38,700 bases of DNA from Candidatus Palauibacter australiensis (GTDB lineage Bacteria > Gemmatimonadota > Gemmatimonadetes > Palauibacterales > Palauibacteraceae), in assembly GCA_026705295.1 (NCBI GenBank), contig JAPPBA010000098.1, positions 1 to 38,700 of the forward strand. The letters are read 5' to 3'. This document shows positions 5,147 through 26,104 of the stretch, piece after piece. A model generated the notes under the pieces. The model worked only from the letters and a program-made list of their open reading frames with translations, ran no database searches and was not told where the DNA came from. Every line of letters begins with the position of its first letter. Within the stretch, counting starts at the first letter, position 1. Position numbers and translations under genes: made by a program.

Positions 5147-5315
5147 CTAAAGTGTGGTGTCGCAGAAATCTGCGAGTCACCGAGAGTGCCGGGGCGCCGG
5201 CTTCCGCAAGGCGCTCCGACGAGGAATAGCAGAGCTATTTCGAGGAGGAGCAACGCAGCGGGGACGGATGCAGCGGCGCTCGAATGACCGCAGTATTTCT
5301 GCGACACTACACTAA
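5147..5315. mobile_element. MITE-like inverted-repeat element inserted between two permease genes
   Basis: The ends are terminal inverted repeats: 5151-5169 (AGTGTGGTGTCGCAGAAAT) and 5295-5313, whose reverse complement differs at one base in 19. Similarity continues inwards in a looser form (CTGCG, GTCA and CGAG blocks) to about 40 bp per arm. The centre carries a second small hairpin, AATAGC/GCTATT at 5225-5239. CTAA is found at both outer edges (5147-5150 and 5312-5315), which could be a target-site duplication, though the right copy overlaps the repeat end. No transposase is encoded. The length of about 165 bp, the inverted termini and the lack of coding capacity fit a MITE or a similar dispersed palindromic element. 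The right edge contains the TAG stop codon of permease 1 (5312-5314 on the minus strand). Confidence 0.7.
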
Positions 5316-8734: not shown

Positions 8735-8756
8735 CCGTTTCTCCGATCTGTCGCCG

Positions 8757-9899: not shown

Positions 9900-10029
9900 C
9901 TGGCGATTCTGCCTTGTTGTTCGGAATATGGGATGGTGGTCAGCCCCGATCGGGATCGACCAACTTGAAGCCGGCGGCGCCAATCCGCGAGTCCGCGCGG
10001 CGGACGCTGTCTTGAGCGGAGGAGGAACG

Positions 10030-11128: not shown

Positions 11129-13561
11129 CTACCGCCCGATGAGCCCCAGGAAGCGGGGATGCTCGCGCACGCGCTCGAAGTCGTCCGCGTTCGGCAGGGT
11201 GCGCCGTCGTCCGGGATTGAGTTCGACCGCCCGCTCCAGGGCGTCGAAGGCGTCCTCCTCGCGCCCGTCGTCGAGCAGGAGCGCGGCCAGCGTTACCCAC
11301 GCGTTGTCGTTCTCCGGCGACCTGGCCGAGGCGTCGCGCGCGAGCGCCAGGGCGCCCTGCAGATCGCCGTCCCGCCGCAGCCGCGAGGCTTCGCGCAGCA
11401 TCTGGCCCGAACGGTACATGTTGAGGACCCGGCGCAGTTCGGCGAGCGGTTCGTCGTGGTCGTCCACGCGGATGTCGACGACGCGGTCGCTGTAGCCCCC
11501 GTTGACCCGCGGCGCCACGACGAGGATGGCGCCGGATTGCATGCCGCGCGCATCGCCGCCGGCCGCCTGCGCGGCGTCGAGCGCGTCCATCAGCCGCTCC
11601 GCGAGCGGTCCCGTGGACGATTCGAACGAGGCCGCCATCGCGTCGACCACCTCGGGCCCGGTGAGGATGTTCCCCTGCGCGCAGTAGTCCACGCCGCACC
11701 TGTGGCCCTTCCAGTCGCTCGCGCCGGCGCCGGTCCAGGCGGCCGTCCTTCCCTGCTGGTCGAGGATGGCGACCTGGCGGCGGTCCCGGCCCTCGTCGCT
11801 CCCGACCATCATCTCGAGGGCCTCCTCCGGCGAGTAGCCGGCCTGCAGGAGCTCGATGCCGATGGCCCCGTACATGGGGTTCGCGGCGGCCTGGTGGGCG
11901 ATGATCACGAGTCCGCCCTTGGCGTGCATGGCGCGGTTCCCGGCCCCGAACGCCTTCGACTGCACGCCCATCCCCAGCTCGCCGGTCGCGGGATCGCGCC
12001 CGATGATCGAGTACGTGCCGAGGTAGTTCGGGTCGAAGAGCGCCGCGGCCCCGGATGTCGGAACCATGCGGGGCTCGGGGGCCGCCTCGGGCGAAGCCCA
12101 GGCGCCGCCCAGCGCGCGATGGACCGCCAGCCGCGCGAGGGCCAGGTCTCGCGTCGCACCCGCCAGCGCCGCCTCGACGTTCAGAAGCGTGCGCAGGGCG
12201 TCAAGATAATCGGTGTAGCCCACGACCCCGGACTCGTACCGCTGCGACTGCAGCTCCATCGTCGCCAGTGCCTCCTCGCGCTGGGAGGCGAGGAACGCGT
12301 GCCGCCGCGTCTCGTTCTCCAGACCCGCGAGGGCGGTTTCGACTTCGTTCACCGCCGTCACCACGGTCCGTCCGTACATGTGGGCGGCCTCATCGAAGCG
12401 GCCCTCGGCCAGCGCGAGGTTGTTCCGGAGCCGACCGGCCTGGAAGATGGGCGCGGTCAGGTTCGTGATCAGGTTCGTGAACCATTGCTGCACGTCGAAG
12501 AGTTCCCCGGCGTCCGCGCTTGCGAGCCCGATGGAACCGGAGAGCGAGAGCGACGGAAGCAGTTGGGCCCGGCGCGCGCCGATGCTGTAGCGGGCCGCGT
12601 CCAGCCGCTGGCCCGCCGCCCTCACGTCGGGCCGCTGGAGCAGGAGATCCGCCGGGATCCCGGCGGGGACGGGGTCCGCCGCCAGTTGCGGCGCGAGGGA
12701 GTCGGGCAGGATCGCCTCGACATCCTCCCGATAGCCACCCAACAGAACGGCCAGCCGTGCCTCGGCGCTCGTGAGCTGCGTCTCGATCTGCGGCAGCCCC
12801 GCCTGCGTGTTCCTGAGGTCCTGGCGGACCTGTGACAGCGTCCACGAGTCGATCAGGCCGCGATCGTAGCTGGTCGAGGCCAGCGACTCGCGTTCGAGCA
12901 GCACCTCCACCGTCTCGCGGGTCAGTTCGGTCTGACGCCGCAGGCTGACGATGTCGAAGTACGTGGTGATGGTCTCGGCCAGGATGCCGATCCGCGCCGC
13001 ATGGAAATCCGACTCCGAGGCCAGGTATTCCGACCCCGCCGCCCGCGCGTCGTTGCGGGCGCGCCCCCAGAAGTCCAGTTCCCAGGCGAAATCGGCGCTG
13101 ACCGAGTAGGTCGTCAGATCGATTCTGTCCGGAAACACGAAACCGGCGATCGAATCCCCCGGACCACCCAGCCCGAGGGCCTGTATCTGCGCGCCAATGC
13201 CGGCGTCCGTCGGCGTGTCGGTATCGGTGACGTTCCCGCTCGCCCCCACGCTCGGGAAGAGGTCGGCCCGCGCGATGCGCGCCCGCGCGCGAGCCTGCCG
13301 AACGCGCGCAACGCCCGCGGCGAGGTCGAAGTTGGAGGCAAGCACGGAATCGACCACGGCATCGAGCACCGGATCGCGGAACGTCGTCCACCACTCCAGC
13401 GGCTCATACGTCCCCGGCTGCAGGTCGGCCGCAAAATCCTCCGGCATCTCTGCCACCGGCTCCGGAAGGGACGGCCCCGGGGCCAGCGAACAGGCGGAGA
13501 GCAGCAGCAGCGGGACGGCCCCCGCCGGTTTCGTCAGACGCGGTACTCCGGTGCGCGCCAT
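11129..13561 (-). CDS. Fusion: TolC/OprM-type outer-membrane efflux lipoprotein + DUF1028 (Ntn-hydrolase fold) + TPR-like tail
   Basis: One uninterrupted 810-residue frame. Residues 1-24 are a lipoprotein signal with lipobox LSAC (C24). Residues ~40-488 form a complete outer-membrane factor of the NodT/OprM class: EWWTTFRDPVLDAVV, the DFAWELDFWGRARN hallmark, two TolC repeats, LLQRPDVRAAGQRLDAAR, and a natural end at ALGGAW. A ~27-residue linker follows. From T516 (GTYSIIGRDPATGELGMGVQ) to about 735 is a full DUF1028 domain, including AANPMYG, GRDRRQVAILD and GGDARGMQSGAILVV. The last ~75 residues (DGDLQGALALARDAS, ALERAVELNPG) look like TPR helices. The outer-membrane factor's C-terminus faces the periplasm, so the added domain would be periplasmic. 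It starts 7 bp after the TorF-like gene. No RND pump or adaptor gene is nearby. I do not know this architecture from characterised proteins. Confidence 0.9.
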   Translation of the reverse strand: MARTGVPRLTKPAGAVPLLLLSACSLAPGPSLPEPVAEMPEDFAADLQPGTYEPLEWWTTFRDPVLDAVVDSVLASNFDLAAGVARVRQARARARIARADLFPSVGASGNVTDTDTPTDAGIGAQIQALGLGGPGDSIAGFVFPDRIDLTTYSVSADFAWELDFWGRARNDARAAGSEYLASESDFHAARIGILAETITTYFDIVSLRRQTELTRETVEVLLERESLASTSYDRGLIDSWTLSQVRQDLRNTQAGLPQIETQLTSAEARLAVLLGGYREDVEAILPDSLAPQLAADPVPAGIPADLLLQRPDVRAAGQRLDAARYSIGARRAQLLPSLSLSGSIGLASADAGELFDVQQWFTNLITNLTAPIFQAGRLRNNLALAEGRFDEAAHMYGRTVVTAVNEVETALAGLENETRRHAFLASQREEALATMELQSQRYESGVVGYTDYLDALRTLLNVEAALAGATRDLALARLAVHRALGGAWASPEAAPEPRMVPTSGAAALFDPNYLGTYSIIGRDPATGELGMGVQSKAFGAGNRAMHAKGGLVIIAHQAAANPMYGAIGIELLQAGYSPEEALEMMVGSDEGRDRRQVAILDQQGRTAAWTGAGASDWKGHRCGVDYCAQGNILTGPEVVDAMAASFESSTGPLAERLMDALDAAQAAGGDARGMQSGAILVVAPRVNGGYSDRVVDIRVDDHDEPLAELRRVLNMYRSGQMLREASRLRRDGDLQGALALARDASARSPENDNAWVTLAALLLDDGREEDAFDALERAVELNPGRRRTLPNADDFERVREHPRFLGLIGR

Positions 13562-13568
13562 CGCGTGC

Positions 13569-14285
13569 TCAGGGCGCGATGCTGAAGCCGAACACCAGAT
13601 GCGCCCGGTCCTGGTCGGGATTCAGGATGTACGCGACGCTCACCGGCACGGCGAAGGTGTCCGTGATCGCGAGGTCCTTGCTCGCCGTGACCCCCATGTT
13701 GACCACGGCCGCTTCGTCGGTGCCGTAGAAGTCGCTCTCGCCGCCCACGAAACCCAGGTGCAGCCCGACATCCACTCCCGACATCTCGAACGGCACGCCC
13801 ACCTCCGCGTACAGCACGCTGCTCTCGGTAAGCATGCCTCCGAAGAGGGAGATCGGGAACGTCTCCGGACCTGAGAAGGCGAGCGACATCTCCACCGTGT
13901 GCGACGCGCCGGCCCCAAAACCCGTCCGGGCGTCGGGCGAGGGGAAGTAGTAGTCGGTGATTCCGACCGCGACGGAGAGGCCCGATTCGGACGTCACCGT
14001 GTAGGTCGCCCAGAGATCGTTCTCGTTGGCGGAAGCGCCCGACGCGGAGATGGAGTACGAACCCCACGCGCCGAACTCGAGCCCCCCGGCCCCGAAGGTG
14101 ACCGCCGGTTGCACGGCCATGGATTCGCCGAAGTCGACGCCGCGCCACACGTAGCGGCTCACGACGTCGGCCCCGATCGAGACGGCTTGGCCCCACGCGG
14201 GGACGGCGAAGGCGAAGAGGGCCGCGACGGCAGCGACGAGCCGGAGGCCCCGGAACCGGAACGAATCAACGCGGATCACGGACAC
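13569..14285 (-). CDS. TorF-family (Gcw_chp) putative outer-membrane porin
   Basis: The 238-residue protein has a Sec signal (LVAAVAALFAFAVPAWGQ) and a mature part rich in alternating beta strands ending in the C-terminal aromatic/hydrophobic pattern of a beta barrel (HLVFGFSIAP). The early VVSRYVWRGVDFGES motif is the hallmark of the TorF / Gcw_chp family of small predicted porins. Their substrate is unknown; from memory such genes sometimes sit beside ammonium-transporter genes, which would fit the Amt gene in this same operon. The start is GTG at 14285, preceded by GAGGAG at good spacing, and it overlaps the transglutaminase stop by 10 bp. The gene ends 7 bp before the efflux-DUF1028 fusion, so the two outer-membrane proteins are likely co-expressed. 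Confidence 0.83.
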   Translation of the reverse strand: MSVIRVDSFRFRGLRLVAAVAALFAFAVPAWGQAVSIGADVVSRYVWRGVDFGESMAVQPAVTFGAGGLEFGAWGSYSISASGASANENDLWATYTVTSESGLSVAVGITDYYFPSPDARTGFGAGASHTVEMSLAFSGPETFPISLFGGMLTESSVLYAEVGVPFEMSGVDVGLHLGFVGGESDFYGTDEAAVVNMGVTASKDLAITDTFAVPVSVAYILNPDQDRAHLVFGFSIAP

Positions 14286-15163
14286 GATTCTTCTCCTCTT
14301 TCAATGGTGACCCGGGTGCGGAGCATCGACTCCGCCGAACCCCGGAATACGCCGCGAGTGGGCGGCACATCGGCATAATCGCGGCCCACCGCGACCCGCA
14401 CATGGCGCACATCGCATTGTGTGTCGTTCGTCGGATCGAAGCCGACCCATCCCAGGCCGGGAAACCAGCTCTCGACCCAGGCGTGGCTTTCGCCGCTCGT
14501 CACACCACCGCCGTTCCCGCCGCCGCCGTTCCCGCTGTCGGGACCCAGATAGCCGGAGACGTAGCGGGTCGGGATCCCCCAGCCACGCAGGATCGAGGCC
14601 ATGACATGAGCGTAGTCCTGGCACACACCCTCGCGGCTCTCGAGGATGCGCTCGATCGGCGAATCCACGGCGGTCGTACCTGGAATATAATCAAACGACT
14701 CGTGAAGCCGGCTTCGCAGGGTCGTGGCGGTCGCCAGCGGGTCGGCCCCGCGTTCGAGGCCGCAGCTCTCGATGAAATCGGCGAGGAGCGGCGAGGAGCG
14801 GACGAAACGGCTGGGTTGCAGCATCAGCCCGAGTTCGGGAGCGCTCGCCGCCGCGCCGATCCGAGCCCACGCCTCTTCCCCGACCTGCAGGGGAATCTCA
14901 GGTGTCGGGCCCACCTCCACGGTCGAACGTCCGACGATCGAGAGACGGCGATGCGCGCCGGGGCGATCGAAGAAGTGGCCCCGGTTGTGAAAGGGTCCTT
15001 CGAATTCGAACACGGGACCGGACGGGTCGGTCTCGATCACGAACCCGCGCACGACCTGTGTTCGATCCTGCACGGGGTGCAGATAGAGCGTCATGACGGA
15101 CGCCCGCACCGGCGCGCTGTACACGAACTCGACCGCGTGTTCGATCGTGTAGCGCGCGATCAT
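14276..15163 (-). CDS. Bacterial transglutaminase-like cysteine protease/amidase
   Basis: The 295-residue protein carries the N-terminal beta domain of bacterial transglutaminase-like proteins (RYTIEHAVEFVYSAPVRAS, then LHPVQDRTQ) and the papain-like transglutaminase core. The catalytic triad is visible as C181 in GVCQDYAHVM, H227 in ESHAWVESWFP and D243 in GFDPTND. A glycine-rich insert GGGGNGGG precedes the His strand. Proteins of this group accompany alpha-E and circularly permuted ATP-grasp genes in many bacteria and are thought to cleave or rearrange amide bonds made by the ATP-grasp enzyme; no reaction has been shown to my knowledge. The ATG at 15163 overlaps the alpha-E stop as ATGA. 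A longer frame to 15529 is only the alternative-frame shadow of the alpha-E gene. There is no signal peptide, so it is cytoplasmic. Confidence 0.93.
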   Translation of the reverse strand: MIARYTIEHAVEFVYSAPVRASVMTLYLHPVQDRTQVVRGFVIETDPSGPVFEFEGPFHNRGHFFDRPGAHRRLSIVGRSTVEVGPTPEIPLQVGEEAWARIGAAASAPELGLMLQPSRFVRSSPLLADFIESCGLERGADPLATATTLRSRLHESFDYIPGTTAVDSPIERILESREGVCQDYAHVMASILRGWGIPTRYVSGYLGPDSGNGGGGNGGGVTSGESHAWVESWFPGLGWVGFDPTNDTQCDVRHVRVAVGRDYADVPPTRGVFRGSAESMLRTRVTIERGEESCP

Positions 15164-16152
15164 GACGGGAGCCCCGCGGTCACCGGGTAGTCGACGTACG
15201 TGGCCTGCACGAGGTCGTGCAGCGTCCGGCTGTCGCGTGTCAGAGAGCCGAAGACCCCGGATGCGGCATCGGGGGCGGTATCGGGGGCGGCATCCGCCTC
15301 GCCCGGGTCGAGTTCGAGGGCCGCCGCGATGCGAAGCGCCAGACGGTGCGGCGCGGCGAGCGGCGGGCGTCCGCCGGCCGGGTCGATGCCGCGCAGCGTG
15401 GATCCGATCCGGCCGGTCGCGTAGTGCAGCGAATGGGAAACCTCCGGGTTCCGCATCAGAAAGCCGAGTACGGAGGTGCGCTGCAGCCTGAGCGACCGGT
15501 CCCGGCGGTAGGGTTCGAAGGCGCCGCACACGCGCAGCAGGTCGGCCCAGGAGAGGACCAGGCCGTCACCGTGCGGCCGCGCGATTCGATCCCACACGTC
15601 GAGCAATACGATCTGCTGCTGCAACCGTTCCACGTAACGGCCGAGTTCGAGGAAGCGCCACGCATCGTCGCGCGCCATGGTGGCGTCCACGACCCCGGCG
15701 AGGAGGCGGAGCCGGTCGATGGCCTGGCTGACCAGGCTAACGGGCCCTTCGCCCCATACCTCGGCGAACTCCGTCTCCTCGAGCCACAGGTACCCCTGGT
15801 TCAGGCACACCCACACGCGCAGGGGCAGCCGGGGCCGGATCTCCCTGGCGTTCTCCCGCGCCATCCCCCAGCACGAAATCACCGACGCCGGGTTCGTCGT
15901 GTCCTCGACGAGGCCGCCCGTCAACGTGTAGGCATCCGCGATGAGGAAGGCTTCGGCCTCGTCCACATCGGCCGGCGCCTGGGGAGGGGGCTGACTCAGG
16001 GCCCGGTAAACGACGCGCCATCCGAGGGCGAGTTCATCGGCATCCGCATCCACGAGCCGGGTCAGCTGATACTCGAGCAGGCGGGCCGTGTTTTCGGTCC
16101 GTTCCGCGTAACGGCCAAGCCAGTAGAAGTTCGCCGCCATCCGGGCTAGCAT
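15160..16152 (-). CDS. Alpha-E domain protein (DUF403)
   Basis: The 330-residue, mostly helical protein begins MLARMAANFYWLGRYAERTE, the signature opening of the alpha-E family (DUF403), and keeps the family's NPASVISCWGMARENAREIR and WRFLELGRYVERLQQQ blocks. Alpha-E proteins occur next to, or fused to, circularly permuted ATP-grasp enzymes and are assumed to be partners in a peptide or amide-ligation system of unknown product. Here it lies 24 bp downstream of the ATP-grasp gene and overlaps the transglutaminase start by 4 bp. A short acidic region (EADAAPDTAPDAAS) near residue 300 looks like a disordered linker. It is probably a cytoplasmic, non-catalytic or poorly understood partner. Confidence 0.93.
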   Translation of the reverse strand: MLARMAANFYWLGRYAERTENTARLLEYQLTRLVDADADELALGWRVVYRALSQPPPQAPADVDEAEAFLIADAYTLTGGLVEDTTNPASVISCWGMARENAREIRPRLPLRVWVCLNQGYLWLEETEFAEVWGEGPVSLVSQAIDRLRLLAGVVDATMARDDAWRFLELGRYVERLQQQIVLLDVWDRIARPHGDGLVLSWADLLRVCGAFEPYRRDRSLRLQRTSVLGFLMRNPEVSHSLHYATGRIGSTLRGIDPAGGRPPLAAPHRLALRIAAALELDPGEADAAPDTAPDAASGVFGSLTRDSRTLHDLVQATYVDYPVTAGLPS

Positions 16153-16176
16153 CGTCCGTCGCCTCTCACCCGGCCG

Positions 16177-17676
<1,500 letters not shown>

Positions 17677-17700
17677 CGAACGCCTCCCTTGGGCGGACGT

Positions 17701-19140
17701 TCAGTCCGCGTCGCGGAAGTCGTTGTCGTCGTCGGGATCCACCATGAGGATGAATTCGGGATAGGCATCGATCCCGAGTTCCGCCGCGTCCTGGCCGATG
17801 CTCTCGACGCTCCGCGACACGCGAACGCCCAGCGTCCTGTCCAGCACCGTCCAGAAGATCCAGGAAACGGAGAAGACGAACGCGCCGACGGCCGCGACGC
17901 CGGTCAACTGCGGGACGAAATCGCCGCCGGCCGCGATGCAGGTGGCGAGCGTGCCCCAGATGCCGGCGAACAGGTGCGCGGGCACGGCCCCGACCACGTC
18001 GTCGATCCGCCGCACCTCCAGCAGCTTCAGGCCGAACATGCACAGGAGCGAGCCGACGGCGCCGATCAGGATCGCCCACAGCGAGTTGGTGATGTTCGGT
18101 CCCGCCGTGATCGCCACCAGGCCGGAGATCGCCCCGTTGAGCGTGGCGAAAAGGTCGACCCGGCCGAGTATGGACCGCGACAGGCAGAGCGCCGTGATGA
18201 CGCCGGCCGCGGCGGCGAGGTTCGTGTTCACGAGGATGTTGCTCATCGATACCGCGTTGACGACGCCGGAAAGGGCGAGTTCGGAGCCGCCGTTGAAGCC
18301 GAACCAGCCCATCCAGAGGATGAACACGCCCAGCGTGACCGCGGGGATGTTCGACGGGGGGGTCGGCTTGATGGAGCCGTCCTTGCGGTACTTGCCCCAG
18401 CGCGGACCCACGACGAGCGCGCCGGCGAGCGCCGCCCAGCCGCCGGTCGAGTGCACGATCGTCGAACCGGCGAAGTCCGAGAAACCCATCTGGTCGAGCC
18501 AGCCGCCGCCCCACGTCCATGCGCCGACGATCGGGTAGATGACCGCGGTGAGCCCGCCCACGAAGACGAAGAAGGTCCAGAGCTTCACCCGTTCCGCCAG
18601 CGCGCCGGAGACGATCGAGGCGGTCGTGGCGACGAAGACCATCTGGAAGAACCAGTCCGACATCACGGAGTAGTTGTTGTCGCCCGCGGCTTCGCGCACG
18701 GCTGCGGTCGCCGCATCCACGTCGGCGTCGGCCGCCACCGCTTCGATGAGCGCGACCTCCTCGGCGGAGGGGCCGTAGAGGAGGCTGATCGAACCGATCA
18801 CGCTCCCCACATCGACGTACATGAGGTTGTAGCCGATGACGTAGTAGGCGAGACCCGCGATGGCGTACAGTCCGATGTTCTTCATGCAGATCATGGACGC
18901 GCTCTTGGACCGCACGGACCCGGCTTCCAGCATCGTGAACCCGGCGCACATCCACATCACGAGCACGCCCCAGACGAGGAACGAGTACGTGTTGAGAACG
19001 AACCCGAGATCTCCGGCAACGTCCTGCGCGGCGAGGACAGCCGGCGCCAGGACGAGGCCCGCGCCGGAGAGCAGCGCGGCGGTTGCAAGGCTCCTTCCCG
19101 CCGCGAACCGGCGGAACCAGCGTACCTGATGGGTGCTCAC
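17701..19140 (-). CDS. amt: Ammonium transporter (Amt family)
   Basis: The 479-residue protein has an N-terminal signal-like helix (SLATAALLSGAGLVLAP, then LAAQD) followed by about eleven membrane helices. Amt hallmarks are present: the pore twin histidines H230 (STIVHSTGGWAALAGA) and H389 (GAVPAHLFAGIWGT), plus the family block WMGWFGFNGGSEL. It should move ammonium/ammonia across the inner membrane as a trimer. The C-terminal tail is short and acidic (DPDDDNDFRDAD), and there is no adjacent glnK/PII gene. The start is GTG 19140 with AAGGAG six bases upstream; the frame stays open to 19236 but nothing supports that extension. An insertion of about 40 residues rich in Ala/Asp/Glu (residues ~120-160) lies in a periplasmic loop. 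It is the first gene of the operon that continues into the ATP-grasp system. Confidence 0.94.
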   Translation of the reverse strand: MSTHQVRWFRRFAAGRSLATAALLSGAGLVLAPAVLAAQDVAGDLGFVLNTYSFLVWGVLVMWMCAGFTMLEAGSVRSKSASMICMKNIGLYAIAGLAYYVIGYNLMYVDVGSVIGSISLLYGPSAEEVALIEAVAADADVDAATAAVREAAGDNNYSVMSDWFFQMVFVATTASIVSGALAERVKLWTFFVFVGGLTAVIYPIVGAWTWGGGWLDQMGFSDFAGSTIVHSTGGWAALAGALVVGPRWGKYRKDGSIKPTPPSNIPAVTLGVFILWMGWFGFNGGSELALSGVVNAVSMSNILVNTNLAAAAGVITALCLSRSILGRVDLFATLNGAISGLVAITAGPNITNSLWAILIGAVGSLLCMFGLKLLEVRRIDDVVGAVPAHLFAGIWGTLATCIAAGGDFVPQLTGVAAVGAFVFSVSWIFWTVLDRTLGVRVSRSVESIGQDAAELGIDAYPEFILMVDPDDDNDFRDAD

Positions 19141-19189
19141 GGCGGCTCCTTCTTCAACAGGTTTCGTCACTTGATCGTGGCCCTCCGCG

Positions 19190-19265
19190 ACTCCGGCAGA
19201 CCGCGGAAAAGCCCCGCTGCGTTCGAGCGGCGCCAACGCGGGGTTTTGCCACGGCCTGCCGAGTT
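19190..19265. repeat. Large imperfect palindrome in the amt leader; copy 1 of a dispersed 30-bp motif
   Basis: On the minus strand the leader reads CGGCAG, CCG, GG, AAAA, CCCCGC, CGTT and then, after an 11-base loop, the complementary blocks ending CTGCCG, giving a hairpin of about 75 bp with small bulges. Its core, read towards amt, is a CCCCGC/GCGGGG stem followed by CTTTT, which resembles an intrinsic terminator 50-120 bp ahead of the amt start. The left arm (19195-19224) matches 33304-33333 at 26 of 30 bases. It may therefore be a repeated palindromic element, a leader attenuator, or both. Confidence 0.6.
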
Positions 19266-19391
19266 TAGGTTGCGTCCCTGCTCGGCATCGCGCAACGGGT
19301 TCTCGGTGCGCCGGTAGCCGAACGGCGGTGGCCGGCTATCTTCGGGTGTGACCGGGCTACACCGGAATCTTCGACGAGAGGGCATATCACT

Positions 19392-20450
19392 ATGTGGAAA
19401 CGCTCCATCGGAGTGGTCGCCGCATTTGGGCTGGGGCTGACGCTCCCCACCGTCCACCCCCTCCTTGCCCAGGAAATCCGGGCGCGTGGCGGCTCCACCG
19501 TCACCGTGGGCGCCCGGATCCAGGCGCAATACGAGGCTTCGAGCGTTGACGAGGCGCCAACCTCGTTCTTCATCCGCCGCGCGTGGGTGACGATCGACGG
19601 GAGGCTCAACGATCTCGTCACAGGCAGGGCCCAGTTCAACATCGACGGCGCATCGGTCCTGGAAGCCTACCTGGAACTCACGCCGAGCGAAGCGCTGCAG
19701 ATCCAGCTGGGGCAGTTCAAGAAGGGGATGTCCTACTTCTGGCTGGTGCCCAATGCCTGGCTCCCGATCATCGAACGAGACGCCCGGGTTACGGGGGTGG
19801 ATCACTGCCCCGGCGTCGGAAGCGTATGCACCTTCGGCCGCCTCACCGACGCGCTTGGCCTGGACAACTACGAGCCGGGCATCCTCGCGCAGGGGCGCGT
19901 GAGCGAACTCTTCGGCTACCGGTTCACGCTCACCAACGGCGAGGGGATCGGGAACAAGGACGTGAACACCGGGAAGTCGGCCTCGGGCCAGCTCTCGCTC
20001 TTCCCGACCGGAGGGACCACGCGCGTGTCGGCCTACTTCGCCCTGGACGAGACGTTGAACAGCCGGGACGAGACGATGGGCGTCCCGGCGATCGGGGCCG
20101 AGGTGGAACTCGGGACGTGGATGGGCGGTCCCCACCTGATCGCCAACGTCCTGCAGGGCCGCAACTGGAAGCTGAACGATGACGCGAAGTTCTCCGCCTT
20201 CCAGTTCATGGCCTTCTGGTACCTTCCCACCGCGCCGGAGTCCGGGTTCTCGGGGATCGAGCCGATGCTTCGGGTAAGCTGGGTCGATTCCGGTGCGGAA
20301 CACCCCGAAAAGGTCACCGGGACGGTGGTCACGCCCGGCGTCATGGTGTACTTCACGGGCCGAAACGGGATCTCCACGAACGTGGATTTCTACAGCTCTG
20401 GCGGCCGGTCGGACTGGTCCTGGAAGGTGCAGGCGTTCGCTTTCTTCTGA
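19392..20450 (+). CDS. Outer-membrane porin, phosphate-selective porin O/P-like
   Basis: The 352-residue protein has a Sec signal (IGVVAAFGLGLTLPTVHPLL then AQE). The mature part has the features of OprO/OprP-like 16-strand porins: an early GARIQAQYEASS strand, FFIRRAWVTIDGRLNDLVTG with a strand carrying AQFNIDG, then LQIQLGQFKKG, and a final strand WSWKVQAFAFF ending in Phe, the usual barrel terminus. Such porins take up phosphate/polyphosphate or other anions. Here the specificity is unknown. Two cysteines (DHCPGVGSVCTF) may form a loop disulphide. It is divergent from the amt operon and is followed by a strong terminator. The ATG at 19392 has only a weak GAGAGG about 13 bases upstream. Confidence 0.82.
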   Translation: MWKRSIGVVAAFGLGLTLPTVHPLLAQEIRARGGSTVTVGARIQAQYEASSVDEAPTSFFIRRAWVTIDGRLNDLVTGRAQFNIDGASVLEAYLELTPSEALQIQLGQFKKGMSYFWLVPNAWLPIIERDARVTGVDHCPGVGSVCTFGRLTDALGLDNYEPGILAQGRVSELFGYRFTLTNGEGIGNKDVNTGKSASGQLSLFPTGGTTRVSAYFALDETLNSRDETMGVPAIGAEVELGTWMGGPHLIANVLQGRNWKLNDDAKFSAFQFMAFWYLPTAPESGFSGIEPMLRVSWVDSGAEHPEKVTGTVVTPGVMVYFTGRNGISTNVDFYSSGGRSDWSWKVQAFAFF

Positions 20451-20539: not shown

Positions 20540-20875
20540 CTACTTGAAGCTCGCCTGAGCTTCCTCGACCGTATCGAAGACCTTGGTCAGCCGGACGAAA
20601 CCGCTGACCTCCAGCACTTCGAGGATATTCTCCGGGACGTGGCACAGGGCGAGCCCGCCGCCGGCCTGGTTGGTCTTGCGGATGGCGATCAACAGCGCCC
20701 GCAGCCCGGCACTGCTGATGTAGCGCAGGCTCCCGCAATCCAGGACCAGGTTGGTCGCTCCCCCATCGATGATGCCGGAGAGCTCCCCGTCGAAGTCCTT
20801 GGCGTTGCTGGAGTCTACGCGCCCGCTGACCACCCCTACGGCGGTATCTCCCGAATAGCTGGTCTCAATGTTCAT
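20540..20875 (-). CDS. STAS-domain anti-sigma factor antagonist (RsbV/SpoIIAA-like)
   Basis: The 111-residue single-domain protein matches STAS antagonists: SGRVDSSNAKDFDGEL in the first half and LDCGSLRYISSAGLRALL, where one of the paired serines is the expected phosphorylation site of the partner kinase, then FDTVEEAQASF at the end. In partner switching the unphosphorylated form binds the RsbW-type kinase and frees its target. The ATG at 20875 lies inside the end of the RsbW-like gene (11 bp overlap), so the two are made together. The phosphatase that would reset it is probably the divergent receiver-PP2C protein at 21544. Confidence 0.93.
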   Translation of the reverse strand: MNIETSYSGDTAVGVVSGRVDSSNAKDFDGELSGIIDGGATNLVLDCGSLRYISSAGLRALLIAIRKTNQAGGGLALCHVPENILEVLEVSGFVRLTKVFDTVEEAQASFK

Positions 20876-21308
20876 CTGGCGATTCCTCGGTTCCGGCAGC
20901 CCCCAGCGGCTGCCTTAGGGTAAGGCAGTTGAAACCCTCGACCCGCTCGTACGCAAGCGTGTCAATAAAAGACTTCGTAAGGTGGATGCCAAGCCCCCCG
21001 ATGGGACGATCTTCCGCCGCAAGGCTTATGTCGGGGGTCTCCGCGTCCTCAAGCGGGTTGAAGGGTCGGCCGTTGTCCCGAATCGTGATCTCAATGTCGG
21101 CGTCTCCGAGCCGAATGTCCACCGTGATGACCGGATCCCCCGTAACTCCCTCGAATCCGTAGGAGATGACGTTCGTCAGGAGTTCGTCCAGCGAGAGCTG
21201 AAAACGGAAGACGATGTCGTTGGAAAGCCCGCGCTCGAGGCAGAAGCGCTCGACCTCGTCCACTACGCGACGTGGCTCGCTCGGGTCCGGCTTGACGGCG
21301 ATCCGCAC
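20865..21308 (-). CDS. RsbW/SpoIIAB-like serine-protein kinase, anti-sigma factor (HATPase_c_2)
   Basis: Taken from GTG 21308 the protein is 147 residues, the usual RsbW size. It shows the GHKL ATPase motifs: the N-box LSLDELLTNVISYGF, the G1 box IRDNGRPFNP and the G2 region RPIGGLGIHLTKSFIDTL. Such kinases phosphorylate a STAS antagonist and sequester a sigma factor or other target. The frame is open to 21791, but the extra sequence is low-complexity Ser/Arg and antisense to the receiver domain at 21544, so I chose GTG 21308, which has AGGAG upstream. No sigma factor gene is adjacent, so the target must be elsewhere or may not be a sigma factor. It is followed by the STAS gene with an 11 bp overlap. 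Confidence 0.9.
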   Translation of the reverse strand: MRIAVKPDPSEPRRVVDEVERFCLERGLSNDIVFRFQLSLDELLTNVISYGFEGVTGDPVITVDIRLGDADIEITIRDNGRPFNPLEDAETPDISLAAEDRPIGGLGIHLTKSFIDTLAYERVEGFNCLTLRQPLGAAGTEESPDEH

Positions 21309-21543
21309 TCCCGCTCCGCTCCTGTTCGCTGGCTGCCCACTCGCTGTGCCGGGCGCCCTCGGCGCCGAAACTACGCACGCTGCCGAGGTTCGACATATTG
21401 CGCGGCCGGTCCCCGGTTGCGGAGATTCCCGCACCGCAGCGCGGGGACCCCCGCGCGAAATCGACAGGGACGATGACGACTGGACGCGGTTTCGGACAAG
21501 GGCGGGGACCCATGTTCGACGATTCACCTCAGCCGAGGCCTCG

Positions 21544-22701
21544 ATGCCGAAGATCCTGGTAGTAGACGACGAACCCGATCTGGAGCTGCTCCTCCGGCAG
21601 AAGTTCCGGCGCCGGATCCGCTCGGGCGAATTCACGCTGGTCTTCGCCCAGAACGGGGTCGAGGCCCTCTCGAAGTTGGAGAAACACGACGACGTCGACG
21701 TCGTGCTCTCCGACATCAACATGCCCGAGATGGACGGCCTCACGCTGCTGGCGCAACTGGGTGAACTCGACCGCGACCTCCGCGCCGTCATGGTGACGGC
21801 CTACGGGGACATGAAGAACATCCGCACCGCCATGAATCGCGGTGCCTTCGACTTCGTCACCAAGCCGATCGACTTCGGTGATCTGGAAACCACCATCGCC
21901 AAGACCTTGGAGCACCTCGCGGTGATGCGAGCCGCGCTTCGCGACCGGGACGCGCTGGTGGCGTTGCGCCAGGAGCTTGGCGTGGCGGCGAGGATGCAGG
22001 AGTCGATTCTGCCGACGAACTACCCCAGCGACCCGCGCTACGAACTCCATGCCTGGATGACGCCGGCCCGCGAAGTGGGAGGGGATTTCTACGACTTTTT
22101 CCGCCTCGAGGAAGACCACATGGCGATCGTCATGGCCGATGTCTCGGGCAAGGGCGTGCCGGCGGCCTTCTTCATGATGGTGAGCCGCACGCTGCTCAAG
22201 GGGACGGCAATCGGCGAGGCGGACCCCTCGGTCTGTCTCGACGAGGTGAACCGGCTTCTCATCAACGAGAACGAGGAGTCGATGTTCGTGACCCTCTTCT
22301 ACACCAAGTTCAATCCCGTGAACGGTCAGGCCACGTTCGCGAACGCCGGGCACAATCTTCCGTTCCTCATCAAGGCGTCGGGAGAGGTCGAGCAGATCGT
22401 CTCCGATCCGGGACTCGTGCTCGGCATCATGTCCGGGGTCGATTTCCCCAAGGGGTCGATCACGCTTGAGCCGGGCGATGCCGTCTTCTTCTACACGGAC
22501 GGCGTGACGGAGGCGATGAACGAGGATGGCGTCGAACTCGGCGAAAAGGAGCTGGCCGAGGTGCTGGGCGAATGCCACGGCTCGTCGGCGGAAGACATCA
22601 ACCGGCACGTGATACGGGCGGTGCAGGAACATGCGGGAGAGGCGGACCAGTCCGACGACATCACCTGCCTGACCCTCCGGTACCTGGGGACGCCCTCCTG
22701 A
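21544..22701 (+). CDS. Response regulator with PP2C-type (SpoIIE/RsbU) serine phosphatase output
   Basis: The 385-residue protein has an N-terminal receiver domain (MPKILVVDDEPDLELLL; phosphoacceptor D57 in VVLSDINMPEMDG; conserved Lys in FVTKPIDF), a helical linker (LRDRDALVALRQELGVAARM) and a C-terminal PP2C/SpoIIE phosphatase (AREVGGDFYDFF, MADVSGKGVPAAFFMM, FFYTDGVTEAMN, SDDITCLTLR), whose aspartates bind the two metal ions. It should dephosphorylate a STAS antagonist, most simply the one at 20540-20875, when its receiver is phosphorylated by the kinase at 23876-26104. It is divergent from rsbW/STAS. The upstream ribosome-binding site is weak. Its stop overlaps the next start as TGATG, so the three plus-strand genes are coupled. 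Confidence 0.94.
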   Translation: MPKILVVDDEPDLELLLRQKFRRRIRSGEFTLVFAQNGVEALSKLEKHDDVDVVLSDINMPEMDGLTLLAQLGELDRDLRAVMVTAYGDMKNIRTAMNRGAFDFVTKPIDFGDLETTIAKTLEHLAVMRAALRDRDALVALRQELGVAARMQESILPTNYPSDPRYELHAWMTPAREVGGDFYDFFRLEEDHMAIVMADVSGKGVPAAFFMMVSRTLLKGTAIGEADPSVCLDEVNRLLINENEESMFVTLFYTKFNPVNGQATFANAGHNLPFLIKASGEVEQIVSDPGLVLGIMSGVDFPKGSITLEPGDAVFFYTDGVTEAMNEDGVELGEKELAEVLGECHGSSAEDINRHVIRAVQEHAGEADQSDDITCLTLRYLGTPS

Positions 22702-23879
22702 TGCGGCGCCGGTCGTTCGCGCTCGCGGCCGTCGTCGCGGCCGGCACGCTGCCCGGCCCCGCCATGTCGCAGCAGGGCGAAGCCGCGACCGAGGGGGTGT
22801 ACGCCGATTCCATCGTCTTCGGCCAGTCCGCGGCCCTCGAAGGGCCCGCCGGCGAACTGGGCCGCAACATGAACCTCGGCATCCGGGCCGCGTTCGAGGA
22901 AGCCAATCGGGAGGGCGGCGTCCACGGGCGCGCCCTCCGCCTCATCGTCCGCGACGACGGCTACGAACCCGAACCCGCCGTCGCCAACACGCAGGAACTC
23001 ATCGAGCACGGCGTGTTCGGCCTCATCGGCGCCGTCGGCACGCCGACCTCCGCCGCCGCGGAACCCGGCGCGAGCGAAGCGGGCGTCCCCTACATCGGGG
23101 CGTTCACGGGCGCCGGCCTGCTGAGGGGCCCGGACCAGCGTTACGTCGTCAACCTCCGGGCGTCGTACGGCCAGGAAACCAAGGAGATGGTGGACCGCCT
23201 CGTGGATGACCTCGACTTCCGGCGCATCGCGGTATTCTACCAGGATGACAACTACGGGCTGGCGGGCCTGACGGGCGTCCGCAGCGCGATGGACGAGCGT
23301 GGCATGGCACTCGTCAGCGAGGCGCCATACATGCGGAACACGCGGGCCGTGAAGCGCGGTCTGCTCGACATCCAGGCCGGCAACCCGCAGGCCGTCATCA
23401 TCATCGGCGCCTACATCCCCGTGGCGCACTTCATCCGGTGGGCGAGGAAGATCGGCCTCGACGCCCTGTTCGTGAACATCTCTTTCGTCGGCAGCTACGC
23501 CCTCCTCGACGAGCTGGGCCGCGCTGGAGACGGCGTCGTCGTGACGCAGGTCGTGCCCTTCCCCCGCGACCCGAGCGTCCCCGTGGTGGCGCGCTATCAG
23601 GCCGCGCTGCGGGCGGTCGATCCCGCCGCCCGGCCGGGCTTCGTATCGCTGGAGGGCTATCTGGCCGGACGGCTGGTCGTGGAGGCGCTGGCAGCCGGCG
23701 ATCCGGACGTTCGGCCCAGCCGGGAGTCCTTCCTCCGCACGCTGGCGGAATCCGGGCCCATCGACCTCGGCGGGTTCACCGTCGAATACGGCGTGGAAGA
23801 CAACCAGGGCTCGGACCTCGTGTTTCTGACCGTGATTCGGGAGGGCGAGTTCGTTCCCGTGACCCGGCTCTCCCGGTGA
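22701..23879 (+). CDS. Periplasmic ligand-binding protein, LivK/Peripla_BP_6-type, probably a sensor component
   Basis: The 392-residue protein has a Sec signal (RRRSFALAAVVAAGTLPGP then AMSQQ) and the two-lobed type I periplasmic binding fold: IVFGQSAALEGPAGELGRNM, the GLIGAVGTPTSAAAEPGASE lobe hinge, RRIAVFYQDDNYGLAGL and GFVSLEGYLAGRLVVEAL. These match branched-chain amino-acid/amide/urea binding proteins. No LivH/M/G/F permease or ATPase genes are near. Instead the start overlaps the response-regulator stop by one base (TGATG), and the stop overlaps a membrane histidine kinase. The likely role is therefore to bind a small ligand in the periplasm and present it to the kinase, as TorT does for TorS. 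The ligand is unknown; amides, amino acids or urea are family-based guesses. Confidence 0.88.
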   Translation: MRRRSFALAAVVAAGTLPGPAMSQQGEAATEGVYADSIVFGQSAALEGPAGELGRNMNLGIRAAFEEANREGGVHGRALRLIVRDDGYEPEPAVANTQELIEHGVFGLIGAVGTPTSAAAEPGASEAGVPYIGAFTGAGLLRGPDQRYVVNLRASYGQETKEMVDRLVDDLDFRRIAVFYQDDNYGLAGLTGVRSAMDERGMALVSEAPYMRNTRAVKRGLLDIQAGNPQAVIIIGAYIPVAHFIRWARKIGLDALFVNISFVGSYALLDELGRAGDGVVVTQVVPFPRDPSVPVVARYQAALRAVDPAARPGFVSLEGYLAGRLVVEALAAGDPDVRPSRESFLRTLAESGPIDLGGFTVEYGVEDNQGSDLVFLTVIREGEFVPVTRLSR

Positions 23880-26104
23880 GTACCGCGGGGCCTCCGGTGA
23901 AACAGAGCGACGAGCGCATCCACCGCGCCTTCGAGTGGGCGCTGGCGCGGCTCCCCGGCCGGATCGGGGCGCGGGCACGGGAGGCGACGGGCGGCCGGTT
24001 CGGCATCGGCAGCCAGATCGTCGTCGGACTGGGCGGCGGCGTGCTCCTGACGATCAGCGCCATCCTCCTCGCGCTCCTCCTGATGACCATCGTCGAGCGC
24101 GGACAGAGCGAGGTCACGCAGGAACAGATCCCTTCGCTCCTCGCCGGCCACCGCGTGACCCAGCACAGCGAGGCGCTCCTGCGCGCATCCCCGCAGCTCC
24201 TGTCAGCCGCGGACCCCGCGACGCTGGCGGACGTCCGGGCCGCCGTCCTGCTGGAACAGGACAGCCTCCAGTACTGGGTCGGGGAGGTCGGCGGCGGAAC
24301 GGGCATGGAAGCGGATGTCGCCGGTCTGGCCGAAGGCCTGGTGGCGAACATCAACGAGATCTACGAGTCGGTCAACAACCGGATGACCTACGCTGCCCGG
24401 CTCGCCGAGATGGCGGCGACCGTCGAGGAGACCGGACTCCGTCTCCAGTCGGTGCTCGAGGAGGCAATCGACGATCAGTATTTCTTCATGCGCACGGGGC
24501 TCCGCCAACTGACGGACGTGCCGGCGCCGGGTGCCCAGCGCCAGGCGCTCGACGAAATCGAGCAGCACGACGGCCTGCTGAACTTCAAGGCGTCGCAGAA
24601 CCAGGCGATCACGCTCATCCAGCAGGCCTTCACCGAGACTGATGCGGAGCAGCTGCTCGCCAACCAGGGGCGCGTGGAGACCGCGCTTCGCGATGTGCGG
24701 GCGACGCTGCCCAGGATCCGTCCGCTCCTGAGGGAGACGCTGGCCGACGCGGTGAGCGTCCCCAGCGAGCTGTACGGAGGTCCCGCCGGCATCTTCCAGA
24801 CCCGGCGGCGGGAACTGGAGGAGGTCGGTCTGGCCGAGGAACTGCTCGAGCGCAACCGGCAGACGACGGTCGAACTCGACATGGGCGTCCGGGCGCTCAT
24901 GGATCGCGTCGAGGACAGCGCCCAGGAGGCGGCCAGTCGCTCCGAGTTCCTCGTGCAGCTGGGGTTCTGGTTCCTCCTCGCCGTGATCCTGTTCACGATC
25001 GGCGCGGCCCGCATCGCCTGGAAGACCTTCGGCCGGTCCCTCATCGTTCGACTGAACAGCCTGTTCGCGACCACGCGGCGCATGTCCGAGGGCGACCTCG
25101 AAGTGAAGGTGGAGGTCGAGGGGAACGACGAGGTGACCGACATGGCGCACGCGCTGGAAGTCTTCCGCAAGCACGCCCTCGAGGTGCAGCGGCTGAACCT
25201 GGTCGAGAAACTGGCGCAGGAAGTGCAGACGAAGAACGAGGCGCTGGAGCAGACGCTCGACGACCTCCGGCGTACGCAGGAACAGGTCATCACGCAGGAG
25301 AAGCTGGCCTCGCTCGGCGCCCTCACGGCGGGGGTCGCCCACGAGATCCGCAATCCGCTCAACTTCGTGAACAACTTCGCGGTTCTGTCGAAGGAACTGA
25401 TCGACGAACTGAAGGAGGAGCTGAACGAGGTCGCGGAGGGGAACGCGGAGATGGACCGCGAGTTCATCGACGAGGTTCTCGGCGACCTGGACATGAACGT
25501 GTCCAAGGTTCGGGAACACGGAGGCCGGGCGGACCGCATCGTCGAGGGAATGCTGGCTCATTCGCGCGACGAGGCCGGCGCCGCGGAGACCATCGACGTC
25601 AACCAGCTGGTCGACGAGTACGCGAAGCTCGCCTACCACGGTTTGCGCGGCACGGACTCCTCCTTCAACGTGACGCTGGACCGCGATTTCGATGACGAAG
25701 CCGGCGAGGTCACCGGCATCGCCCGCGATTTGAGCCGGGTCTTCCTGAACATCGTGACCAACGCCTGTCACGCGACGGCCGCCCGCAAGGAGGCGGAGGA
25801 GGACGCCGACTATTCGCCCACCGTCGCACTCAGGACGAGGGGCTACGAAGACCACGTCATCGTGTCGATCCGGGATAACGGCACCGGTATTCCGGACTCC
25901 ATCGTCCGGAAGATCTTCGAGCCGTTCTTCACGACGAAGTCGGGGACGCAGGGAACCGGGCTCGGACTGTCGATCTCCCGCGACATCGTCGTGGGCCACG
26001 GCGGCGAGCTCGAGGTGGAGAGCGAGCCGGGCGAGTTCACCGAGTTCCGGGTCAAGCTGCTCCGCGAGAGCAACATTTCCGAAGTGGCGGCGGCCGTGAC
26101 ATGA
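23876..26104 (+). CDS. Membrane sensor histidine kinase with large periplasmic domain, HAMP and HisKA/HATPase (TorS-like)
   Basis: From GTG 23876 (GTGA overlap with the binding-protein stop) the protein is 742 residues. TM1 is about residues 46-72 (QIVVGLGGGVLLTISAILLA). A ~285-residue, mostly helical periplasmic domain follows, then TM2 about 358-382 (FWFLLAVILFTIGAARIAW), HAMP (RRMSEGDLEVKVEVEGNDEV), a coiled coil, HisKA with phospho-His H489 (AHEIRNPLNFV) and HATPase (NIVTNACHA, DNGTGIPD, FEPFFTTKSGTQGTGLGLS). The all-helical sensor and paired binding protein recall TorS/TorT. A second GTG at 23897 is an alternative start. It should phosphorylate the receiver at 21544-22701, thereby switching the PP2C and the STAS/RsbW pair. 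It ends 28 bp before the amidohydrolase start. Confidence 0.93.
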   Translation: MSTAGPPVKQSDERIHRAFEWALARLPGRIGARAREATGGRFGIGSQIVVGLGGGVLLTISAILLALLLMTIVERGQSEVTQEQIPSLLAGHRVTQHSEALLRASPQLLSAADPATLADVRAAVLLEQDSLQYWVGEVGGGTGMEADVAGLAEGLVANINEIYESVNNRMTYAARLAEMAATVEETGLRLQSVLEEAIDDQYFFMRTGLRQLTDVPAPGAQRQALDEIEQHDGLLNFKASQNQAITLIQQAFTETDAEQLLANQGRVETALRDVRATLPRIRPLLRETLADAVSVPSELYGGPAGIFQTRRRELEEVGLAEELLERNRQTTVELDMGVRALMDRVEDSAQEAASRSEFLVQLGFWFLLAVILFTIGAARIAWKTFGRSLIVRLNSLFATTRRMSEGDLEVKVEVEGNDEVTDMAHALEVFRKHALEVQRLNLVEKLAQEVQTKNEALEQTLDDLRRTQEQVITQEKLASLGALTAGVAHEIRNPLNFVNNFAVLSKELIDELKEELNEVAEGNAEMDREFIDEVLGDLDMNVSKVREHGGRADRIVEGMLAHSRDEAGAAETIDVNQLVDEYAKLAYHGLRGTDSSFNVTLDRDFDDEAGEVTGIARDLSRVFLNIVTNACHATAARKEAEEDADYSPTVALRTRGYEDHVIVSIRDNGTGIPDSIVRKIFEPFFTTKSGTQGTGLGLSISRDIVVGHGGELEVESEPGEFTEFRVKLLRESNISEVAAAVT

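What the first reader, a model, noticed from the sequence alone, without database searches (positions are those of the whole stretch)
11129..19140. Six-gene run linking Amt, the ATP-grasp/alpha-E/transglutaminase trio, a porin and a channel-hydrolase fusion
All six genes are on the minus strand with gaps of 24, 24, -4, -10 and 7 bp. The central trio is a recognised but functionally unknown amide-ligation module that in other bacteria can co-occur with Ntn-type (proteasome-like) hydrolases. Here the Ntn-fold component would be the DUF1028 domain tied to an export channel, and an ammonium transporter stands at the front. A working model: the ATP-grasp makes an amide-linked product in the cytoplasm under nitrogen control, the transglutaminase edits it, and the channel exports it with a periplasmic hydrolase processing it.
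Basis: partly seen in the sequence, partly recalled or inferred. Interest (0 to 1): 0.75.

Follow-up and report, generated by a model that had tools for sequence, protein, structure and literature searches.

The report
Ammonium-linked ligase cassette of sponge symbionts
A run of genes in a bacterium that appears to live in sponges joins an ammonium importer to a long-known but unexplained set of amide-bond enzymes; the pairing recurs in several unrelated groups that seem to be marine-animal symbionts, which ties the mystery enzymes to nitrogen, while the exporter-hydrolase fusion at its end is a local addition of one genus.

Summary
In detail: six minus-strand genes with the stated gaps, in a Candidatus Palauibacter genome (Gemmatimonadota; placed by near-identical named MAGs). 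The run splits in two. Five genes (Amt, CP-ATP-grasp, alpha-E, transglutaminase, Gcw_chp porin) are one conserved block, present in this order in 30 of 41 other Gemmatimonadota trio loci read. The same ATP-grasp subfamily has Amt within the fetched flank in 49 of 80 named loci, from three phyla, some with glutamine synthetase, GlnE or an RsbV/RsbW/binding-protein/kinase unit; 0 of 6 plasmid-borne trios have it. All 80 titles fit sponge or coral MAG sets, over half by inference. Trees show cross-phylum transfer. The sixth gene, a NodT-type TolC lipoprotein fused to DUF1028-TPR, is complete in 11 of 17 Palauibacter genomes (11 of the 12 with the trio); no full-length match lies outside the genus among 395 phylum genomes. 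DUF1028 models as a proteasome-type Ntn fold with an invariant Thr at the nucleophile place. No Anbu was recognised. A nitrogen role is plausible; export of a trio product is unsupported.

The parts
17701..19140 (-). amt: ammonium transporter, marine subtype (TIGR03644); first gene of the run
   Evidence: 519.8 bits, cut-off 514
16177..17676 (-). circularly permuted type-2 ATP-grasp ligase
   Evidence: one solved relative at E 1e-5 or better, 3n6x, E 3.1e-178; 60-98% identical to the 80 named loci; under 60% to all 109 plasmid records with a match
15160..16152 (-). alpha-E protein
   Evidence: all-helical model, no informative fold match
14276..15163 (-). transglutaminase-like protein with Bact_transglu_N; Cys (GVCQDYAH), His (SHAW) and Asp (FDPTND) motifs readable in the sequence (triad motifs recalled)
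13569..14285 (-). Gcw_chp (TorF-like) outer-membrane protein; last gene of the conserved five-gene block
11129..13561 (-). fusion protein, 810 aa: NodT-type TolC lipoprotein + linker + DUF1028 + TPR
12092..13561 (-). TolC (OEP, NodT/TIGR01845) part of the fusion; lipobox-like LSAC with Cys24 (motif recalled)
11435..12016 (-). DUF1028 domain, residues 516-709, first residue the invariant Thr516
12014..12016 (-). codon of Thr516, predicted N-terminal nucleophile after Gly515
   Evidence: model residue 7 is paired with chain residue 1 at the start of six of the listed HslV/proteasome rows
11201..11383 (-). TPR repeats of the fusion
19141..19391 (.). divergent intergenic region of amt and the porin gene; conserved blocks in 10 Palauibacter genomes, the likely promoter region (inference)
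19392..20450 (+). protein without Pfam match, read as outer-membrane porin from its sequence; divergent from amt and kept there in 21 of 40 Gemmatimonadota loci
20540..20875 (-). RsbV-like STAS protein
20865..21263 (-). RsbW-like HATPase
21544..22701 (+). response regulator with SpoIIE phosphatase
22701..23879 (+). periplasmic amino-acid/amide-type binding protein (Peripla_BP_6)
23897..26104 (+). HAMP sensor histidine kinase

Best explanation
The run is a nitrogen-linked operon of what appears to be a sponge or coral symbiont, made of a conserved core and a genus-specific tail. Core (shown as a unit by conservation): an ammonium transporter, an ATP-grasp amide ligase, alpha-E, a transglutaminase-fold cysteine enzyme and an outer-membrane protein. 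Inferred working: ammonium enters through Amt and is fixed by glutamine synthetase (a neighbour in other members); when nitrogen supply changes, the cytoplasmic ATP-grasp builds amide or isopeptide bonds and the transglutaminase with alpha-E trims or transfers them, so the trio stores, moves or recovers nitrogen as amide. Tail (shown as a fusion under purifying selection; function inferred): in Palauibacter a TolC-type lipoprotein carries a proteasome-type Ntn hydrolase domain into the periplasm. Thr516 after Gly515 is predicted to be its nucleophile, freed by self-cleavage from the TolC part, and it would split an amide- or peptide-bearing substrate beside Amt and the porins. That is scavenging, not export of a trio product.
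For: Five-gene block in order in 30 of 41 fetched non-Palauibacter Gemmatimonadota trio loci, plus one cut off by its contig end; sorted by ATP-grasp identity to the window, Amt is there in 30 of 31 loci at 70% or more and in 0 of 10 below 70%. Amt within the fetched flank in 49 of 80 named loci (34 of 52 with 6.5 kb on both sides): Gemmatimonadota 38 of 40, Binatota 5 of 9, Pseudomonadota 6 of 15, in different arrangements; 0 of 6 plasmid-borne trios. In a tree of 17 of these Amt genes they group by phylum, so the linkage may have been made more than once. Glutamine synthetase in 15 of 80, GlnE in 5 of 80 (identities checked by Pfam on two and one of them). dN/dS, window against three relatives: DUF1028 0.015-0.031, ATP-grasp 0.056-0.093, TolC 0.110-0.131; linker indels keep the frame in the 10 of 11 fusions compared. 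Thr, with a small residue before it, in 12 of 12 DUF1028 aligned, five of them from the fusion lineage; Ntn fold, HslV and proteasome chains at Z 11-13. Trio under NtrC/sigma54 in B. cenocepacia (PMC5491218 passages); Anbu up in nitrogen-limited P. putida (PMC5666114 passages).
Against: [quoted passage not shown] No sigma54 site upstream of amt in 39 loci scanned, although RpoN is present. 31 of 80 named loci have no Amt in the flank, among them all 7 Rhodothermota/Bacteroidota and all 7 Acidobacteriota; seven of the 31 have under 2 kb on one side. The fusion was found in one genus, and one species has lost the TolC part.
Confidence: 0.4

Rival explanations
1. One reading: the trio makes an amide-linked product under nitrogen control and the TolC part exports it, with DUF1028 processing it on the way.
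For: Single run of genes; TolC part is a NodT-type efflux outer-membrane subunit; fusion and trio go together inside Palauibacter, 11 of 12 trio-bearing against 0 of 5 trio-lacking genomes.
Against: The block stands elsewhere without the fusion; no MFP or RND gene stands in the run, though sister-family TolC relatives have them; the TolC part is lost in one species while DUF1028 stays.
Confidence: 0.12
2. The trio is a protein-tagging and turnover system as proposed for the Anbu operon, and DUF1028 stands in for Anbu as the proteasome-like peptidase.
For: DUF1028 has the HslV/proteasome-type fold, the superfamily of Anbu; the genome has HslV beside HslU and no Anbu was recognised; the fused gene lies directly downstream of the trio and porin.
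Against: DUF1028 rides on what reads as an outer-membrane lipoprotein, so it would lie in the periplasm, away from cytoplasmic tagged proteins (inference); found in one genus only.
Confidence: 0.13
3. The fusion is a hitch-hiker: an ordinary efflux subunit and an ordinary periplasmic DUF1028 enzyme that became one gene downstream of the nitrogen block without a joint task.
For: Both halves exist apart in the sister family (66% and 74% identical in G058) and DUF1028 stands without TolC in 4 of 5 trio-lacking Palauibacter; the TolC half can be lost.
Against: Fusion kept in 11 of 12 trio-bearing genomes, with frame-keeping linker indels and purifying selection on both halves.
Confidence: 0.25
4. 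The gene order is only an inherited or transferred neighbourhood with no functional link between Amt and the trio.
For: 38 of the 49 Amt-linked loci are in one phylum and share further neighbours; an ATP-grasp tree of 17 Amt-linked rows also follows phyla.
Against: Amt near the trio recurs in Binatota and Pseudomonadota in other arrangements with phylum-typical Amt; 0 of 6 plasmid-borne trios have it.
Confidence: 0.1

Closest known systems
Anbu operon (ATP-grasp, alpha-E, transglutaminase, Anbu)
   Same: The three enzymes in the same order; nitrogen-responsive expression reported in other bacteria (PMC5666114, PMC6376114, PMC5491218 passages)
   Different: No Anbu recognised; Amt in front and a Gcw_chp porin behind; here also an apparently outer-membrane-bound DUF1028
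Trio loci on plasmids of other bacteria (Sinorhizobium, Deinococcus, Caballeronia, Paracoccus, Hymenobacter, Tsukamurella)
   Same: ATP-grasp, alpha-E and transglutaminase close together
   Different: ATP-grasp under 60% identical in all 109 plasmid records with a match; no Amt, RsbV/W, binding protein or fusion within about 8 kb in 6 of 6 loci read
DUF1028 proteins (2imh, SPO2555)
   Same: Same family and fold, 32% identity, Z 28
   Different: Fused behind a TolC lipoprotein and followed by TPR
NodT/OprM-type outer-membrane factor of RND pumps
   Same: TIGR01845 above cut-off, lipobox-like start
   Different: No MFP or RND partner in the run; carries a C-terminal enzyme domain
Steroid gene clusters transferred among Ircinia symbionts (PMC9531527, passages)
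   Same: A small gene cluster spread by transfer over many phyla of sponge symbionts
   Different: Other genes and another metabolism

Membership tests
Anbu operon | circularly permuted type-2 ATP-grasp gene | tested here: met
   CP_ATPgrasp_2 512.7 bits, cut-off 32
Anbu operon | alpha-E gene next to it | tested here: met
Anbu operon | transglutaminase gene with Bact_transglu_N | tested here: met
Anbu operon | Anbu (proteasome-family Ntn hydrolase) in the locus or genome | tested here: not met
   Own genome has one PF00227 match, HslV beside HslU. In 29 sampled genomes 28 matches in 25, of which 25 matches stand beside hslU; of the other three, two are neighbours in one Entotheonella genome, read by me as a 20S proteasome pair, and one is a weak partial match left unclassified
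Anbu operon | control by nitrogen supply | tested here: inconclusive
   RpoN present in 5 of 5 genomes; best sigma54-like site upstream of amt reached by at least 12 of 100 shuffles in each of 39 loci
DUF1028 as Ntn hydrolase | Pfam DUF1028 | tested here: met
   220.1 bits, cut-off 26.2
DUF1028 as Ntn hydrolase | Ntn (proteasome-like) fold | tested here: met
   predicted model, pLDDT 85.5; 2imh Z 28.0, HslV and proteasome chains Z 11-13
DUF1028 as Ntn hydrolase | conserved Thr/Ser/Cys at the place of the N-terminal nucleophile | tested here: met
   Thr in 12 of 12 aligned sequences; paired with residue 1 at the start of six HslV/proteasome rows, while other HslV rows give ranges that begin elsewhere
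DUF1028 as Ntn hydrolase | self-cleavage and hydrolase activity | not testable with these tools
   needs protein
NodT-type RND outer-membrane factor | TIGR01845 above cut-off | tested here: met
   299 bits, cut-off 210.05
NodT-type RND outer-membrane factor | MFP and RND genes alongside | tested here: not met
   none in the run; beside the relatives in L057 and L058 both stand, beside L059 the MFP
Marine-type Amt (TIGR03644) | model score above cut-off | tested here: met
   519.8 against 514
TorF (TIGR02001) | model score above cut-off | tested here: not met
   23.5 against 47.15; Pfam Gcw_chp is met

The most novel reading that the evidence does not exclude
A nitrogen cassette that spread among unrelated sponge and coral symbionts and in one genus took up a self-cleaving, outer-membrane-borne proteasome-type hydrolase in place of Anbu, so that the amide-ligase trio of the cytoplasm and an amide-splitting enzyme of the periplasm form one nitrogen store-and-release or scavenging circuit tuned to the host's ammonia.
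Probability: 0.15. Interest if true: 0.82.

Novelty: new variant of a known kind. Interest (0 to 1): 0.6.

Why it matters
The ATP-grasp/alpha-E/transglutaminase trio is widespread and its job is unknown. Physical linkage to an ammonium transporter, and in other members to glutamine synthetase and GlnE, in three phyla with different arrangements, points to nitrogen handling by a route independent of expression data and gives a concrete test. If the apparent limit of this subfamily to sponge and coral MAG sets holds (80 best of 106 loci seen, sources partly inferred), the transfer across phyla suggests a trait useful in ammonia-rich animal hosts. A TolC protein fused to a proteasome-fold hydrolase is an architecture for which I found no description: 'DUF1028' occurs in 0 papers of the library searched, and searches for the sponge-trio combination gave none; subscription papers and preprints are mostly outside that library.

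Tried and rejected
Sigma54 site upstream of amt: in 39 loci the best score was reached by 12 to 100 of 100 shuffles (loci with amt under 450 aa left out). Rfam: no match in the window. Alpha-E fold: loose helical matches only, best Z 10.2 at rmsd 6.0, no function read from it. Literature on TorF/TIGR02001/TIGR03644: one listed paper, unrelated by its title. Insertion of the block beside an ancestral DUF1028 site: four trio-lacking Palauibacter loci show none of the other 11 window or pump proteins I queried near DUF1028, one of them close to a contig end, so not supported. Recent co-transfer of Amt with the ATP-grasp: the tree of 17 Amt rows follows phyla, so not supported; the ATP-grasp tree of the same 17 rows also follows phyla, so the transfer claim rests on the 35-row tree, a quick tree without bootstrap. 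AU test: p 1e-57 for all 10 Gemmatimonadota rows, which include two long branches, and 0.0037 for the 7 Amt-linked rows.

Errors of mine: two queries (duf1028, also used, and rr21214) were translated out of frame; their rows there are meaningless and were redone with the right frame. The same wrong-frame pieces were among the training genes of the gene caller (and the regulator piece). The first gene caller missed known genes and was replaced; the second failed on lower-GC loci among L142-L155, nine of which were redone by longest ORF. Ten of the 16 loci are the Gemmatimonadota loci already known to lack Amt, so only the six plasmid loci are a control; for the ten I give the split by ATP-grasp identity instead. 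Several of the ten are short contigs, and L067 and L096 end inside or beside the trio.

Dropped or unsure rows: only the best 80 of 106 confirmed loci were returned, and the patterns were made from this subfamily, so 'sponge and coral sets' is a statement about those 80. I moved five loci with Pseudomonadota titles or lineage (L118, L119, L120, L157, L183) to Gemmatimonadota because their contig lengths equal those of genomes placed in family f6 of the phylum search, and counted two titled Deltaproteobacteria (L136, L147) as Binatota by gene order, an assumption. Two of 43 non-Palauibacter alpha-E loci (G348, G400) were not fetched. Palauibacter genome G003 has 7% contamination in the tool's table. 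Source of the MAGs: jk18x (21) from passages of PMC9531527; RHO (12) and Plut (3) from the species names rhopaloidicola and poriticola; Spongia_Bin9 (1) from its title; the other 43 are inferred from prefixes (some fit the hosts listed in passages of PMC8163846) or recalled.


Full report
What is there. The six genes and their spacings are as reported. The window is a whole 38.7-kb contig of a 3.58-Mb genome. Named relatives with 95-98% identical ATP-grasp include three Candidatus Palauibacter species, Gemmatimonadota; a published study places Palauibacterales MAGs in sponges, sediments and saline soils, clustering by origin (PMC10469786, passages).

Conservation inside the genus. Of 17 Palauibacter genomes (own one included) 12 have alpha-E and 11 have the full-length fusion. 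In the 10 other fusion-bearing loci the neighbourhood from the RsbW gene through the fusion to the DUF3500 and ABC genes is the same, one being cut inside amt by its contig end. Of the five trio-lacking genomes four have a DUF1028 without TolC and one has none detected. The fusion is therefore not an assembly fault: the ten copies compared (of 11) keep the frame through linker indels, and dN/dS of the DUF1028 part against three relatives is 0.015-0.031, the lowest of the run.

Conservation outside the genus. In 395 genomes of the phylum (own included) 54 have alpha-E: 11 Palauibacter and 43 others. I read 41 of the 43. Thirty have amt, ATP-grasp, alpha-E, transglutaminase and Gcw_chp porin in this order (porin of L075 and amt of L095 in pieces), one more lacks only amt at a contig end, and ten have the trio without amt and porin, several of these on short contigs. 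The split follows the ATP-grasp itself: 30 of 31 loci at 70% identity or more to the window have amt, 0 of 10 below. No full-length fusion match at E 1e-60 or better lies outside Palauibacter in the 395 genomes; the halves occur apart, outside the genus with TolC up to 68% and DUF1028 up to 75% identical (two candidates scored per genome).

Other phyla. A scan of named genomes with an alignment of this ATP-grasp subfamily confirmed 106 loci and returned the best 80, at 60-98% identity. Amt lies within the fetched flank (up to 9 kb) in 49 of 80: Gemmatimonadota 38 of 40, Binatota 5 of 9, Pseudomonadota 6 of 15, none of 7 Rhodothermota/Bacteroidota, 7 Acidobacteriota, 1 Bdellovibrionota and 1 Tectimicrobiota (phylum labels mended as told under what was tried); with at least 6.5 kb on both sides it is 34 of 52. 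In the Amt-linked Binatota the order is trio, glutamine synthetase, Amt; in four Rhodospirillales loci Amt with RsbV, regulator, RsbW, binding protein and kinase faces ATP-grasp and alpha-E; in the Acidobacteriota RsbW and RsbV follow the trio; in three other Binatota and in Entotheonella the whole signalling unit follows ATP-grasp and alpha-E (domains checked by Pfam on ten of these proteins). RsbV is found in 41 of 80, the binding protein in 33, the kinase in 34, glutamine synthetase in 15 and GlnE in 5. As a contrast, six plasmid-borne trios of named bacteria have no Amt, RsbV/W or binding-protein hit within about 8 kb, and none of 109 plasmid records with a relative reaches 60% identity.

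Transfer. In a tree of RplB from 35 of these genomes each phylum with several members is one group except Proteobacteria in two, and Gemmatimonadota have SH-aLRT 100. In the ATP-grasp tree of the same genomes 19 rows from five phyla form one clade of support 100, the four Rhodothermota/Bacteroidota rows pair with a Gemmatimonadota row (97), and a Bacteriovoracales row pairs with a gammaproteobacterium (97). Holding Gemmatimonadota together is rejected (p 1e-57 for ten rows, two of them long branches; 0.0037 for the seven Amt-linked rows). In a smaller set of 17 Amt-linked genomes both Amt and ATP-grasp group by phylum, so recent transfer of the linked pair is not shown; the Amt linkage may have been made with resident Amt genes. 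All 80 record titles fit sponge or coral MAG sets; for 37 this rests on what I read or on names, for the rest on prefixes or memory.

The hydrolase. DUF1028 aligned from 12 genes, five of them of the fusion lineage, shows one invariant Thr at its start, preceded in all by Gly, Ala or Ser. The model (pLDDT 85.5) matches the solved DUF1028 protein 2imh at Z 28 and HslV and proteasome chains at Z 11-13; model residue 7, the Thr, is paired with chain residue 1 at the start of six of the listed rows, while other HslV rows give ranges that begin elsewhere. This supports a proteasome-type Ntn hydrolase; cleavage and activity are predictions. The TolC part has a lipobox-like start and is NodT-type, so the C-terminal domain should face the periplasm (inference). 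Of three sister-family relatives two stand with MFP and RND genes and one with an MFP; none stand here, though the genome has several RND genes elsewhere.

Anbu. The classical trio operon carries Anbu (PMC5666114, PMC6376114, passages). The own genome has one proteasome-family match, HslV beside HslU, and of 28 proteasome-family matches in 29 sampled genomes 25 stand beside hslU; two others are neighbours in Entotheonella and one is weak, so no Anbu was recognised.

Nitrogen. Links known before: NtrC and sigma54 control of the trio cluster in B. cenocepacia (PMC5491218 passages), nitrogen limitation in P. putida (cited in passages of PMC5666114 and PMC6376114), and correlation with urea domains in marine metagenomes (PMC3597751 passages). 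What I add is the repeated physical linkage with Amt, glutamine synthetase and GlnE; I found no description of it in my searches. A sigma54 site was not found, so control may run through the neighbouring RsbV/RsbW, SpoIIE regulator, binding protein and kinase; that is a guess from position.

Verdict. Real, conserved and informative; the five-gene block is the unit, the fusion a genus-specific extra. New variant of a known kind.

Noticed in passing
window 19194-19262: A 69-bp palindrome (-42.4 kcal/mol, z -3.6) sits between the conserved upstream region and amt in this genome only of 10 compared; the genome has 31 matches including this one, several as pairs of about 35-bp ends some 100 bp apart, which looks like a MITE of about 170 bp with an internally deleted copy here.
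   Followed up: partly
window 20540-26104: RsbV, RsbW, response regulator-SpoIIE, Peripla_BP_6 binding protein and sensor kinase form a unit that also stands near the trio in Rhodospirillales, some Binatota and Entotheonella loci; the RsbW/RsbV pair alone follows it in 7 of 7 Acidobacteriota loci.
   Followed up: partly
   Followed up: partly
window 5307-9935: Polyamine-type ABC genes with two related binding proteins next to the run, kept in the other Palauibacter loci as far as these reach.
   Followed up: no
window 10030-11073: DUF3500 protein on the plus strand, convergent with the fusion, kept in the 10 other fusion-bearing Palauibacter loci.
   Followed up: no
L068-L072 (family f7): Five of five other-type trio loci of this family show one or two further transglutaminase-like matches in front of the ATP-grasp.
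   Followed up: no
L118, L119, L120, L157, L183: Records listed under Gammaproteobacteria whose contig lengths equal those of Gemmatimonadota genomes in the phylum search; the labels look wrong.
   Followed up: partly
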